From contig JAIUOC010000001.1 in the NCBI GenBank assembly GCA_020161265.1, positions 930,001 to 994,000 on the forward strand: 64,000 nt of DNA, in the 5' to 3' direction. Each line of letters opens with the position of its first letter. The first letter of the stretch is position 1. Under the pieces are notes generated by a model. It worked only from the letters and a program-made list of their open reading frames with translations. It made no database searches and was not told the DNA's origin. Below are positions 22,399 to 57,435 of the stretch, one piece after another. The translations under genes were made by a program, and so were the position numbers. Source of the stretch: Chloroflexota bacterium (GTDB taxonomy: Bacteria; Chloroflexota; Chloroflexia; Chloroflexales; Herpetosiphonaceae).

Positions 22399-22525
22399 GG
22401 GGATCGGTTGTTAGGGATCGGCGGCTAGGAATAATGGAGCTACTTATATCTCCGATAAGGTAGATGCTCTGCGCCTCTGCGTTAAACCTTAGGTTCCGAT
22501 TCCCGATCCCCAACAACCGATCCCC
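22399..22525. repeat. Composite intergenic element 1 (inverted-arm form)
   Basis: Arms related to GGGGATCGGTTGTTGGGGAT at 22399-22421 and, inverted, at about 22496-22525 enclose a core with CTCTGCGCCTCTGCG (22467-22481). On the minus strand the element starts at the helicase stop codon and ends 3 bases before the ribE ribosome binding site. Confidence 0.85.
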
Positions 22526-22530
22526 AATCC

Positions 22531-24540
22531 CTAACCCAACACACTATCCAATAAGGCGGCATTGGTTTTTTCGGCTTCATTGAGCGTATCGTTGGCTTTG
22601 CGTAACTCTTCGCCAAGCTGCTCCATTTGAGCACGAATTTCATCAAAACTCTTGGAATGCAAAATAATATCAGTTATGCGTACTTCAAGGCTTTGTTGTT
22701 CGTGCATAAACGAAAGCATTGCATCAATTTCGCCAATCACGGTTTGGAACATATCGATTTTACCAGTCAGCACATGTAAAATATATTCTTCGATTGTACC
22801 GCGTAAAATCAAGGTATAAATTTCAACGGGCCGTTCCTGACCATAACGATGCACCCGACCGATCCGTTGCTCGATCCGCATTGGATTCCATGGCAAGTCG
22901 TAATTTACCAAGCGATGGCAAAATTGTAAGTTAAGCCCTTGACCACCGCTTTCGGTTGAAAGAAAAACTTGAGCCTTGCCATCACGGAAACGCTCAACTG
23001 CATTACGTTTTTGCATCCCGCTCAGGCCGCCGTGGAACAGCACCGATTCAACTCCGTGATCAACCAAGAAATCGCGCAGGAATTCAAGTGTTGCCACAAA
23101 CTCGGTATAGACGATGATTTTGCTATCATCGTTTTTGATAATTTTGAGTAATGAACGAGCTTTGGATGGAATCTGCATCTCATCGACGATGTTGAGCAAA
23201 CGTTCTAATTCGCCATTATCAGCAGCATCCATCTTGCCCAAACGCGCCGACATCGCGCCACGCAAGGTATGACCAACCGCACGAGGACTCGAAGTCATTT
23301 CCTTGAGCAAGGTCATCAGCACCAACACCAATTTTGAGACTACAACTTTGCCATCGATGCTTTGCAAAACAATATCACCTTCAACATAACGTTGATAGAT
23401 ATGTTTGCAGAAACGCACCATTGCATCGTGAAAATCGTGCTCATCATCGGTCAATTCAATTTCATGATGGTGGATTAAGCGTGGTGGCAACTCAGTCAAA
23501 GTATTTGAACGGCGGTTGCGAATCATCACTTCATTGAGCAAAGCGCGTAAATGTTCAACATTACGAGCATGGCGACGATCTTCCATAAACAATTTTTGAA
23601 ATTGGCGTGGCCCTTTGAGATGGCCAGGCCGCGCAACCGTAATCAAATTATATAATTCGCGCAGCTCGTTTTGAACAGGCGTTGCTGAGAGCAACAAACA
23701 ATGCTTACGGTTTAAATTGAAAACAAATTTATAACGCCCAGTGCGGTGATTTTTGAGCATATGACATTCATCGATCACCAACATATCCCAAGTACGATCG
23801 GTTAGGGCTTTACGATAGGCTCCTTTCGCCCGATCGATCGATCCAACCACCAAAGGATATTGGGCAATATCACTATCATCGCCTAAACGATGAAAATTCA
23901 TGCCAAATTTATCGTGCATTTCTTCGAGCCATTGCTCAGAGAGTGGGGCAGGGGTTAAAATCAAACAAGTGCGAATCATTTCGCGCAAGTGATATTCTTT
24001 GATGATCAAGCCTGCTTCGATCGTCTTACCCAAGCCAACTTCATCGGCCAAAATCGCATTGCCATGCATTTCGCCCAAAACCCGCCGTACAGCCCGCAAT
24101 TGATATTCTTTTGCATCAATCGCTGCATATTCGAGCGAAAGTAGATGGTCAAAGCCACCTTTGAGGGTATAGTGCTCGGCCTGTTCGCGCACCGACCAAC
24201 GATCAGCTGGAGTAACGTGGCCACTGAGCAAGCGAGCACGTTCGCCATCGGTTGGTGGGCGAAAACGCAATTCGCCCAAAATTGGCGGCAAGGCCTGCAA
24301 GCGTGGCGGCGCAGCTACCGGAATTTGCGGGCGGGTAGTTCGCGTATTGGGCGTTAATGCCGATTCAAAATCAGCTCGAATCAAATGCTCATCTAACTCA
24401 AAGCCTAAATGCAAGAGATCAGCTTCAACTTCAGGCTGGTCAATCTCAGGCAATGCTTGGACAAGCTGCTCAAGCTCAAAGGTTGGCTCAGGCAGGCTGG
24501 CCAGAATCTCAAGATAACGCTGGCGACGTAATTCATCCAT
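22531..24540 (-). CDS. SNF2/RapA-like DNA-dependent ATPase (helicase superfamily 2)
   Basis: This 669-residue Swi2/Snf2 ATPase has Walker A EVGLGKTIEAG (Lys172), DECH at 257-260, motif III LLLSATPVQN and the helicase C domain with GGQGLNLQFC and RIEQRIGRVHRYGQ. Family members translocate on duplex DNA and remodel protein-DNA complexes. Residues 1-100 are specific to this branch, and the last 50 form a probable coiled coil. The start lies 17 bases after the stop of the TerB-N-like gene, so the two are one transcript. The pairing is more typical of accessory stress or defence modules than of RapA. The target is unknown. Confidence 0.93.
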   Translation of the reverse strand: MDELRRQRYLEILASLPEPTFELEQLVQALPEIDQPEVEADLLHLGFELDEHLIRADFESALTPNTRTTRPQIPVAAPPRLQALPPILGELRFRPPTDGERARLLSGHVTPADRWSVREQAEHYTLKGGFDHLLSLEYAAIDAKEYQLRAVRRVLGEMHGNAILADEVGLGKTIEAGLIIKEYHLREMIRTCLILTPAPLSEQWLEEMHDKFGMNFHRLGDDSDIAQYPLVVGSIDRAKGAYRKALTDRTWDMLVIDECHMLKNHRTGRYKFVFNLNRKHCLLLSATPVQNELRELYNLITVARPGHLKGPRQFQKLFMEDRRHARNVEHLRALLNEVMIRNRRSNTLTELPPRLIHHHEIELTDDEHDFHDAMVRFCKHIYQRYVEGDIVLQSIDGKVVVSKLVLVLMTLLKEMTSSPRAVGHTLRGAMSARLGKMDAADNGELERLLNIVDEMQIPSKARSLLKIIKNDDSKIIVYTEFVATLEFLRDFLVDHGVESVLFHGGLSGMQKRNAVERFRDGKAQVFLSTESGGQGLNLQFCHRLVNYDLPWNPMRIEQRIGRVHRYGQERPVEIYTLILRGTIEEYILHVLTGKIDMFQTVIGEIDAMLSFMHEQQSLEVRITDIILHSKSFDEIRAQMEQLGEELRKANDTLNEAEKTNAALLDSVLG

Positions 24541-24557
24541 TGGTAAAAACCTATTTT

Positions 24558-55725: not shown

Positions 55726-55818
55726 AATTGGTCGGCTTAAATGCTCTAAAGTGGTGCTTAACCAAGCCACTTGCATTTGCTATGCTCAAGCTAGTTCTGA
55801 ATTAATTGAGGTAGCCCA

Positions 55819-57219
55819 ATGCATCCAGTTTTAGCTCACGATGCTGCTCAAATCGACCAAATTTTAGCCCAGACCCTTGCCACTGCCAAACAATTTCTCC
55901 ACGATTTACCACAGCGTCCGGTTGGAGTTGCGCCGCAAAGCCACCAACCAAGCCAATTGCCAAGCGCTGGATTAGGAGCCGAACAAACGCTTGAGCATTT
56001 TTTGGCACGCTACAGCGATACATTAACTGGTAGCACTGGCCCACGTTACTGGGGCTTCGTCACTGGCGGCGCAACTCCGGCAGCACTGGCAGGCGATTGG
56101 CTGGTCAGCACCTTCGATCAGAATCCAAGTGGCACAACCGAAACTGCCGCAATTCGCGTTGAAAACGAAGCCATCAGCATGTTGCACGAACTCTTTGGCT
56201 TGCCCACGAGCTTTAGTGGCGCATTCGTTTCTGGGGCAACCATGGCCAATTTTGTCGGCTTGGCAATTGGGCGGCAATGGGCGGCCCAACAACTCAACCA
56301 CGATGTTGCCCGTATGGGTTTGTATGGGCTTGCGCCAATTCCAGTTTTGAGCGGCGCACCGCACTCAAGCATTTACAAGGCTATGTCGATGTTGGGCATG
56401 GGTCGCCAACAGCTACAAACAATCGCCTTGCAGCCCGAACGCGAGGCGGTTGATATCGCAGCATTACGTCAAGCACTTCAAGCCTTGCCAGCGAACCAAC
56501 CTGCGATCGTTGTTGCCAATGCAGGCACGGTCAATAGTGTCGATTTTGACGATCTTATGGCAATCGCGGAACTCAAGCAGGAATTCAATTTCTGGTTGCA
56601 TGTTGATGCGGCTTTTGGTGGTTTTGCCGCCTGTTCGCCGCGCTTTGCCCATTTAGTGCGTGGGCTTGAGCAGGCCGATTCACTGACGATTGATGCCCAC
56701 AAATGGCTCAACGTGCCGTATGATTCAGCCATGCAATTCACCCGCCATCGTGCCTTGCAAGTTGAGGTGTTTCATAATAGCGCCGCTTATCTTAGCCCAA
56801 TTGGTGAAAATCCAGGCTTTTTTCATCGCACGCCCGAAAATTCACGCCGTTGGCGAGCGCTGCCAGCATGGTTCACGCTGATGGCCTATGGCTCGGCTGG
56901 CTATCAAGAAATGGTTGAGCGCGATTGCGATTTAGCCCAATTGCTGGCTAGCCATATCAGCGATTCACCGTTGTTTCGCTTGGTCGCGCCTGTGCGCATG
57001 AACGTCGTTTGTTTCAGTTTGGCGTGCAATCCTGATAGCGCTACAATTCAGGCTTATCTTGATGCAGTACGGGCTAGCGGAGCAGTTTTTATGACCGCAA
57101 CCGTCTATGCTGGACAACCAGCGATTCGCGCAGCCTTCTCAAATTGGCGCACTACCACCGCCGATGTTGAGCTGGCTTGGCAGGCAATGGAACGGGTAGC
57201 AAGAGAACATAGAGCATAG
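55819..57219 (+). CDS. PLP-dependent group II decarboxylase
   Basis: This 466-residue enzyme belongs to the glutamate/aromatic amino acid decarboxylase family. The PLP lysine lies in TIDAHKWLNVPYD, with HVDAAFGGF (PLP-ring Asp) before it and ATTTETAAIRVENE-like TTETAAIRVE in the N-terminal half. The substrate is not clear. GAGG lies 8 bases before ATG. The last codons (VAREHRA and the TAG stop) lie inside the word AGAGAACATAGAGCATAG of a composite repeat, so the C-terminus may have been changed by it. Confidence 0.92.
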   Translation: MHPVLAHDAAQIDQILAQTLATAKQFLHDLPQRPVGVAPQSHQPSQLPSAGLGAEQTLEHFLARYSDTLTGSTGPRYWGFVTGGATPAALAGDWLVSTFDQNPSGTTETAAIRVENEAISMLHELFGLPTSFSGAFVSGATMANFVGLAIGRQWAAQQLNHDVARMGLYGLAPIPVLSGAPHSSIYKAMSMLGMGRQQLQTIALQPEREAVDIAALRQALQALPANQPAIVVANAGTVNSVDFDDLMAIAELKQEFNFWLHVDAAFGGFAACSPRFAHLVRGLEQADSLTIDAHKWLNVPYDSAMQFTRHRALQVEVFHNSAAYLSPIGENPGFFHRTPENSRRWRALPAWFTLMAYGSAGYQEMVERDCDLAQLLASHISDSPLFRLVAPVRMNVVCFSLACNPDSATIQAYLDAVRASGAVFMTATVYAGQPAIRAAFSNWRTTTADVELAWQAMERVAREHRA

Positions 57220-57435
57220 AACATAGAACATAGGAGTTGGGGACTGGGGATCAGATTTTGACACAGAGGCGCAGAGCAATAAGGGCTATCGGCTATGGGC
57301 TATCGGAGAATCTATCGGTATTAATAGACAGCGCCAGAAAAAGATACAGTCCAATAGCCAATAGCCAATAGTCGATAGCCGCGACTTCTTCGTGGTTCCT
57401 TCCTTCGTGAACTTCGTTTCCTTCGTGGATCAAAA
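57202..57435 (+). repeat. Composite intergenic element 8
   Basis: Words in order: AGAGAACATAGAGCATAGAA (57202-57221), GTTGGGGACTGGGGATCAG (57235-57253), CACAGAGGCGCAGAG (57262-57276), GGCTATCGGCTATGGGCTAT, then inverted CCAATAGCCAATAGCCAATA (57351-57370), and TTCGTTTCCTTCGTGGATCA (57413-57432). The first word supplies the upstream stop codon; the last abuts the next ribosome binding site. Confidence 0.88.

What the first reader, a model, noticed from the sequence alone, without database searches (positions are those of the whole stretch)
22399..57435. Eight composite intergenic elements that start at stop codons
Recurring words (GGGGATCGGTTGTTGG, AGAGCATAGAACATAG, CACAGAGGCGCAGAG, ATAGCCAATAGCC, CTTCGTGTCCTTCGTGG and CACAGATT) build eight gap fillers at 22399, 35678, 46937, 48341, 50861, 52831, 55536 and 57202. 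All seven that border a 3' gene end begin within 0-6 bases of that stop codon (22531, 35674, 47180, 48522, 51040, 52991, 57219). Polarity is mostly AGAGCATAG word, GGGGATCGG word, then CTTCGTGG word next to the following ribosome binding site. This looks like an ordered modular element family, not random repeats, and I know no described function.
Basis: partly seen in the sequence, partly recalled or inferred. Interest (0 to 1): 0.78.

Follow-up and report, generated by a model that had tools for sequence, protein, structure and literature searches.

The report
Gene-cored hairpin repeats in bacterial gaps
The repeated words between genes look like the inverted ends of tiny genetic elements, mostly emptied here, whose full versions carry one small gene (a nuclease-like or a four-helix protein), and the same layout appears in many bacterial phyla, which may explain repeats that have long had no known origin.

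Summary
The words are real, intergenic and far above chance. They are not one ordered element starting at stop codons: they form inverted arms (purine-rich form at the left of a gap, complement at the right), crowd 3' gene ends but also fill divergent gaps, and the claimed word order fails. The explanation came from genes carrying the same words. In Herpetosiphon, GxxExxY genes (PD-(D/E)XK nuclease fold) are bracketed by inverted copies of one 8-10-bp word (CACGAAGGA, CACAGATT, CACGAATT or CGCAGAGG), four-helix-bundle genes (S23/IVP) by one heptamer (AGAACAT, GGGGATC, GGATGAA or AAAGGCA), and DUF559 by its own word. Bracketing recurs in other phyla: GxxExxY 28 of 30 loci, four-helix 25 of 30, plasmid four-helix 9 of 12. 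In this genome 0 of 148 ordinary genes of similar size reach the lowest score of the genus's bracketed genes. Protein sequence predicts the word, even between phyla. Best reading: the gaps hold gene-less copies and nested remnants of tiny gene-cored elements that work like REP/RAYT pairs with other proteins. Movement itself is inferred. Against it: two genomes hold about 300 DUF559-type words each with no DUF559 match, and only 1 of 6 plasmid GxxExxY genes is clearly bracketed.

The parts
22399..22525 (.). Hairpin element: GGGGATC arm (from 22399), inner reversed CGCAGAGG word (22466-22483), inverted GGGGATC arm (22502-22525) next to the stop of the gene 22531-24540(-)
   Evidence: fold z -3.4/-2.9 on the two strands
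35679..35810 (.). Hairpin element: GGGGATC arm, inner CACGAAGG word (35717-35745), inverted GGGGATC arm (35780-35810); about 3 bases after the stop at 35674
   Evidence: fold z -3.5/-2.0
46930..47179 (.). Composite gap: AGAACAT (46930-46956), GGGGATC (46965-46995), GGCTATT (47029-47037), reversed CACAGATT (47053-47072), reversed CACGAAG (47088-47098), reversed AAAGGCA (47149-47179) abutting the stop of 47180-48328(-)
   Evidence: the five relatives compared carry partly other modules
48374..48515 (.). CACGAAGG arm (48374-48393), short reversed G-family hit (48454-48462), reversed AGAACAT arm (48489-48515)
   Evidence: G110 and G078 carry other words at the stop end of this gap
50875..51037 (.). 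CACGAAGG (50875-50901), CACAGATT (50917-50937), reversed GGGGATC (50972-51002), reversed AGAGCAT (51011-51037) next to the stop of 51040-51903(-)
52836..52985 (.). Hairpin element with GGGGTCA/GGGGCTA arms (52836-52852 and 52962-52985)
   Evidence: fold z -2.7/-2.5
55538..55720 (.). Composite in a divergent gap: GGGGCTA (55538-55576), CGCAGAGG (55588-55603), reversed GGCTATN (55662-55687), reversed CACGAAGG (55694-55720)
57204..57428 (.). Composite: AGAACAT array (57204-57233) holding the stop codon of the gene 55819-57219(+), CGCAGAGG (57262-57277), GGCTATN arms (57284-57306 and 57351-57380), reversed CACGAAG words (57387-57395, 57420-57428)

Best explanation
The intergenic words are the inverted terminal arms of very small elements. 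A complete element is: array of one short word, one small gene, inverted array of the same word, placed between two host genes. Two gene families account in this genus for seven of the eight word families scanned: GxxExxY proteins (TIGR04256, PD-(D/E)XK nuclease fold) with 8-10-bp words, and four-helix-bundle proteins (TIGR02436/PF05635, S23/IVP) with 7-bp words; DUF559 (PF04480) with CCCTCACCCC-type arms is a third kind. The eight window features are gene-less copies (arm-loop-arm hairpins) and nested remnants. Proposed working, inferred: the protein recognises its own word in inverted array form, as folded DNA or RNA, and copies or repairs the element into gaps; copies survive where they disturb least, just after stop codons and clear of the ribosome-binding site. 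Shown here: organisation, word-gene matching, spread over phyla, purifying selection on the genes, different elements at the same site in different species. Not shown: binding, cutting, movement.
For: Bracketing test (350 bp before the gene against the reverse complement of 350 bp after it; threshold = 95% of shifted controls of the same loci): GxxExxY in Herpetosiphon 12 of 12 (12 of 14 matches fetched), other Chloroflexota 16 of 20, other phyla 28 of 30; four-helix in Herpetosiphon 11 of 11 (three fragments of 14 matches left out), other phyla 25 of 30; DUF559 2 of 2 and 5 of 5 (the five small-frame matches below 1e-30 of 18). In the first five sets 0 of 191 shifted controls exceed 40, against 54 of 103 true pairs; in the DUF559 sets 1 of 13. 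Own-genome control: 0 of 148 genes of 270-600 bp reach 28, the lowest score of a bracketed gene in this genus; of all 657 genes 13 do. Best lag is 7 for four-helix flanks (9 of 11, 22 of 30) and 8-10 for GxxExxY (11 of 12, 11 of 20, 19 of 30). The Herpetosiphon genes carry the window's words: CACGAAGG, CACAGATT, CGCAGAGG; GGGGATC, AGAACAT, AAAGGCA, and GGATGAA, which is scanned elsewhere in the genome. Word and GxxExxY co-occur: 22 of 27 word genomes against 53 of 373 others; by genus 10 of 11 against 28 of 213; also in 28 of 39 genomes of other phyla reached through the word. Protein similarity predicts word similarity: Mantel r 0.335 (46 GxxExxY) and 0.149 (37 four-helix) with same-genome pairs removed; 0.249 and 0.143 with between-phylum pairs alone, 0 of 2000 permutations as high each time. 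dN/dS is 0.01-0.11 in 11 of 12 same-type pairs. Same gap, different gene type and word in different species. 37 of 98 gaps hold a same-family convergent pair, 0 only a divergent one; outermost arms match in 24 of 58 gaps, 11.8 expected.
Against: No movement was observed and no clean target duplication was found. CCCTCACCCCC occurs 299 and 303 times in G034 and G043, where no DUF559 match was found; of six genomes only G078 and G110 have the gene. Five of the 27 word genomes lack a GxxExxY match, as do 11 of 39 of other phyla. Of six GxxExxY genes on plasmids only one is clearly bracketed, and one of the nine passing plasmid four-helix genes (score 29) lies under the highest shifted control (32); 2 of 30 and 4 of 20 GxxExxY and 5 of 30 four-helix loci fail elsewhere. 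The 'other phyla' genomes were picked for the CACGAAGG word, which favours GxxExxY. The GGCTATN word has no gene in Herpetosiphon among the loci read. The protein-word correlation is modest and may partly reflect transfer or shared ancestry of genomes. Five of the eight window features do not fold better than shuffles.
Confidence: 0.72

Rival explanations
1. Simple-sequence or G-quadruplex view: the arrays are heptameric microsatellites made by polymerase slippage and kept because four G-tracts or hairpins act on transcription or mRNA ends.
For: PMC4692102 (abstract and sections 3, 13, 14, 16 read) shows GGGNATC heptamers mostly within 50 bp after stops on the coding strand, or before starts on the other strand, inverted pairs included, and in-vitro quadruplexes; lag 7 dominates here too.
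Against: It does not predict that one word is matched on both sides of a particular small gene, that words without G-tracts such as AGAACAT or CACGAAGG behave alike, or the link of word and protein between phyla.
Confidence: 0.12
2. Host regulatory hairpins (terminators, RNase III sites or mRNA-end protectors) that the host maintains; the small genes merely sit among them.
For: Crowding at stops and depletion near starts; strong hairpins at three of eight features; placement inside operon-like gene runs.
Against: Five of eight do not fold unusually; divergent gaps are used; words often change between species in the same gap; no Rfam family matches the window features at gathering score; own-genome genes of like size are not bracketed.
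Confidence: 0.1
3. Classical REP/RAYT or transposon-derived miniature elements moved by an ordinary transposase.
For: Same layout of dispersed hairpins plus a gene flanked by them (PMC8266576, abstract and outline seen; the layout of RAYT loci is from memory).
Against: The one Y1 transposase match in this genome and the one in G110 are not bracketed (score 18, background); arms are arrays of 7-10-bp units. Other transposase families were not searched.
Confidence: 0.04

Closest known systems
REP/RAYT (TnpAREP) pairs, REPtrons (PMC8266576, abstract and outline seen)
   Same: Small gene with repeats that are also dispersed as gene-less hairpins between genes; protein and repeat vary together.
   Different: Protein is of the GxxExxY (PD-(D/E)XK fold), four-helix or DUF559 family, not an HUH transposase; arms are tandem 7-10-bp words; the same word recurs across many phyla.
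23S rRNA intervening sequences (IVS) with the S23 gene (PMC4990558, passages read)
   Same: S23/four-helix gene in the loop of a long inverted repeat, sporadic distribution; RNase III processing reported there.
   Different: The 11 Herpetosiphon four-helix loci hold no rRNA; arms are heptamer arrays with many gene-less copies; RNase III processing not tested here.
Intergenic heptamer repeats: GGGNATC of Xanthomonas/Nostoc (PMC4692102, sections read), TAACTGA (PMC4679880, abstract and passages), Geobacter heptanucleotides (PMC2700814, passages), cyanobacterial STRR (name from search listings and memory)
   Same: Intergenic heptamer arrays near gene ends, inverted pairs in some, origin unexplained or put down to regulation.
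   Different: The parts read link them to no such gene; here 9 of 12 plasmid four-helix genes (11 cyanobacterial loci, 1 Gemmatirosa) are bracketed by such arrays.

Membership tests
REP/RAYT | Y1/HUH transposase gene flanked by the repeats | tested here: not met
   One PF01797 match each in G000 and G110, flanks at background score 18
REP/RAYT | Gene flanked by inverted repeats that also occur as dispersed gene-less hairpins | tested here: met
   with other proteins
IVS (S23 element) | S23/four-helix gene inside a long inverted repeat | tested here: met
   11 of 11, 25 of 30, 9 of 12 loci; four-helix class only
IVS (S23 element) | Location within an rRNA gene | tested here: not met
   No rRNA match in the 11 Herpetosiphon four-helix loci of about 3.3 kb; the other-phyla loci were not scanned
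IVS (S23 element) | Excision from the transcript by RNase III | not testable with these tools
   Needs RNA data
Heptameric simple-sequence repeat / STRR | Tandem degenerate heptamers, mainly intergenic | tested here: met
   Lag 7/14/21 peaks between genes; words A, G, H, P, T
Heptameric simple-sequence repeat / STRR | Explains all words | tested here: not met
   GxxExxY flanks, which carry the CACGAAGG, CACAGATT and CGCAGAGG words, have mostly 8-10-bp lags
Insertion sequence / MITE | Target-site duplication at the ends | tested here: inconclusive
   Gap comparisons with G110 and G078 gave no clean duplication
PD-(D/E)XK nuclease | D-x(n)-E-x-K residues | tested here: met
   60 of 62 GxxExxY matches by a strict pattern, the other two near variants by eye; Pfam PF13366 at 4e-40 for one protein; activity not testable

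The most novel reading that the evidence does not exclude
Bacteria across many phyla share a class of minimal elements in which a single non-transposase protein (PD-(D/E)XK-fold GxxExxY, Avd-like four-helix bundle, or DUF559) recognises and spreads its own tandem-word hairpin arms, seeding the intergenic heptamer and nonamer repeats (cyanobacterial STRR included) that have had no known origin.
Probability: 0.5. Interest if true: 0.92.

Novelty: new variant of a known kind. Interest (0 to 1): 0.83.

Why it matters
It gives intergenic repeats described without an origin a partner gene and a test. It suggests a role for uncharacterised families (GxxExxY, four-helix S23/IVP, DUF559). It places S23-type elements outside rRNA. 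If the proteins act on their arms, they would be very small sequence-programmed systems that settle between genes without breaking them.

Tried and rejected
Rejected: one ordered element; stop-codon anchoring as the rule; arrays supplying TAG stops (TAG at 11 of 30 abutting stops against 155 of 628 others, p 0.19); REP/RAYT by a Y1 transposase; exchange ending exactly at the arms between G000 and G102 (high identity runs into the flanking genes); a known RNA family (no Rfam match at gathering score in the window but one tRNA).

Empty sites: in 144 kb, of 90 gaps, 85 could be compared with G078 and 40 with G110 (49 lacked a flank match and one was not adjacent). None of the 20 comparisons with an array here (12 and 8) was empty in the relative, so insertion points of the window words could not be read. 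The reverse case occurred 9 times in G078 and 6 in G110; the 11 printed with two or more arrays are CCCTCACCCC-type elements, the other four are mixed.

Two GxxExxY copies 94% alike over 517 bp with different left neighbours in one planctomycete genome suggest recent duplication, but both contigs end at the right arm, so an assembly effect is not excluded.

Literature: ten searches; in the listings and the parts read I found no paper that links these words or heptamers to these genes outside rRNA; the six words searched are in no held paper. Only open-licence PMC papers are held. From memory, not from any call: an annotation note may mention repeat-derived ends on GxxExxY proteins.

Limits: gene calls come from my own simple caller; word patterns were tuned on the same genome; placement and orientation are therefore given again without the window. 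The public-genome scan stopped at 120 stretches; by my arithmetic a 17-mer would meet about 30 chance matches in the whole collection, so single hits prove little.
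Full report
WHAT WAS CHECKED. The window is bases 930001-994000 of contig 1 of a 6.04-Mb genome. Five genomes in the 400 searched are of its genus; one, G110, has a contig of 6,346,587 bases, the length of the Herpetosiphon aurantiacus DSM 785 record. All eight gaps hold the reported words. CTTCGTGTCCTTCGTGG has 112 exact copies in the genome and none when read backwards, 98-114 in the five congeners, none in the one sister-genus genome, and 1-16 in 21 other genomes (27 of 400 in all, none with the backwards word).

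PLACEMENT. I called genes with a simple codon-usage caller on 864 kb, removed three CRISPR gaps and scanned 565 gaps. Eight word families were used: heptamers A AGAACAT, G GGGGATC, H GGATGAA, P AAAGGCA, T GGCTATN, and longer words D CACGAAGGA, C CGCAGAGG, B CACAGATT. Arrays lie in 98 of 565 gaps. Without the window, 90 of 523: stop ends are enriched (18 of 85 within 6 bases, 9.7 expected; 54 of 85 within 30, 35.2 expected), start ends depleted, and 25 of the 90 gaps are divergent. The strongest rule is inversion: left-hand arrays mostly read in the purine-rich form and right-hand arrays in the complement. Same-family convergent pairs occur in 37 of 98 gaps and purely divergent pairs in none.

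THE KEY STEP. Some hits lie inside coding sequence and are probably chance. Read by eye, several lie directly before a GxxExxY gene. In Herpetosiphon each of the 12 GxxExxY genes fetched is bracketed by inverted copies of one word family, and each of the 11 full four-helix genes by one heptamer. DUF559 was tried next because gaps of G110, G078 and, once, G043 held CCCTCACCCC-type hairpins; of six genomes G110 and G078 have the gene, bracketed by that word.

CONTROLS. The formal test compares the flank before a gene with the reverse complement of the flank after it. Passing the 95% level of shifted controls: GxxExxY 12 of 12 Herpetosiphon, 16 of 20 other Chloroflexota, 28 of 30 other phyla; four-helix 11 of 11 and 25 of 30; DUF559 2 of 2 and 5 of 5. 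Loci were those the tools returned, best matches first. Of 148 own-genome genes of similar size none scores 28 or more; of all 657 genes 13 do. The 'other phyla' genomes were chosen through the CACGAAGG word, so their GxxExxY rate (28 of 39 genomes searched, one of 40 not held) is biased upward; the Chloroflexota loci were not chosen by any word. On plasmids, found by protein alone and taking 12 of 43 and 6 of 8 records, four-helix genes pass a score of 25 in 9 of 12 (heptamers such as GGGAACA and GGGTGTA; two of the nine are near-identical Nostoc loci) and GxxExxY in 1 of 6; one four-helix shifted control reached 32.

PERIOD AND SPECIFICITY. Four-helix flanks prefer lag 7 (9 of 11; 22 of 30); GxxExxY flanks lag 8-10 (41 of 62 over three sets); 6 of 7 DUF559 loci show no short lag. 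More similar proteins carry more similar words: Mantel r 0.335 for 46 GxxExxY and 0.149 for 37 four-helix loci with same-genome pairs removed, 0.249 and 0.143 with between-phylum pairs alone (phyla assigned by me from record titles), 0 of 2000 permutations as high. The GxxExxY catalytic pattern is kept in 60 of 62. dN/dS between same-type genes is 0.01-0.11 in 11 of 12 pairs; the twelfth has almost no synonymous change.

EVOLUTION OF GAPS. The six window gaps compared are filled in every relative whose flanks were found, often but not always with other modules. At one four-helix site three genomes have the GGATGAA type and three the AAAGGCA type, proteins 54-55% alike between types and 89-97% within; at one GxxExxY site the CACAGATT type (four genomes) and the CACGAATT type (two) alternate, 60-64% between and 89-98% within (site identity read from the flanks). 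At a third site the G000 and G078 copies are 64-75% alike while the adjoining windows are 93-96%. In 144 kb none of 20 comparisons of an array-bearing gap found it empty in G110 or G078; the reverse differences are mostly CCCTCACCCC elements. Counts of CCCTCACCCCC: 14 (G000), 4 (G102), 299 (G034), 303 (G043), 378 (G078), 460 (G110), 0 (sister genus), so abundance does not follow the gene strictly.

HOW IT MOST LIKELY WORKS. Shown: gene, matched inverted arms, gene-less hairpins, breadth, selection, different elements at one site. Inferred: the protein acts on its arms. For GxxExxY and DUF559 a cut in or beside the folded arms followed by copying during repair would fit a nuclease fold (for DUF559 the fold is from memory). 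For four-helix proteins, of the S23/IVP family and, from memory, related to the Avd protein of diversity-generating retroelements, an RNA-level step is more likely. Preference for the space after a stop fits survival where neither reading frame nor ribosome-binding site is harmed.

KNOWN OR NEW. Heptamer arrays near stops, inverted pairs included, are described in Xanthomonas and Nostoc (PMC4692102, abstract and sections 3, 13, 14, 16), TAACTGA repeats in Beggiatoaceae (PMC4679880, abstract and passages), heptanucleotides in Geobacter read as regulatory sites (PMC2700814, passages), S23 in IVS stem-loops (PMC4990558, passages), REP pairs (PMC8266576, abstract and outline). The Herpetosiphon four-helix loci hold no rRNA and the window features match no Rfam family at gathering score. 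In ten searches of the held library I found no statement that such repeats bracket GxxExxY, four-helix or DUF559 genes outside rRNA. I call it a new variant of the repeat-plus-cognate-gene kind, with a fair chance of being a kind of its own.

Noticed in passing
L006, L015, L019: own contig 1 about 604589-611489, 782453-785367 and 871249-875834: Three CRISPR-like arrays with 87, 26 and 47 copies of a 20-mer; removed before counting.
   Followed up: no
L429 1501-1869, L433 1501-1857, L435 1501-1860: On cyanobacterial plasmids four-helix genes sit inside CRISPR gene runs (between cas6 and cas4, or cas10 and a Cmr3-like gene), bracketed in L429 and L435, weakly in L433.
   Followed up: partly
L440 1480-1908: A GxxExxY gene lies between fabD and fabG on a Sphingomonas megaplasmid that also carries rpsF; not clearly bracketed.
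   Followed up: no
L443, L445: Two 94% identical GxxExxY copies with CACGAAGG arms (one perfect pair, one with a single change) on different contigs of one planctomycete genome; both contigs end at the right arm.
   Followed up: partly
window 37084-37136: A terminator-like hairpin between convergent genes here is replaced by a CCCTCACCCC element in G110.
   Followed up: no
viral contigs fetched (L173-L267): CCACGAAGGACACGAAG also occurs in 95 stretches of viral contigs; not read, and some may be host DNA or chance.
   Followed up: no
own contig 1, 680001-700000 (L010): Gene order against G110 is broken up: this 20-kb stretch has strong matches at four distant places.
   Followed up: no
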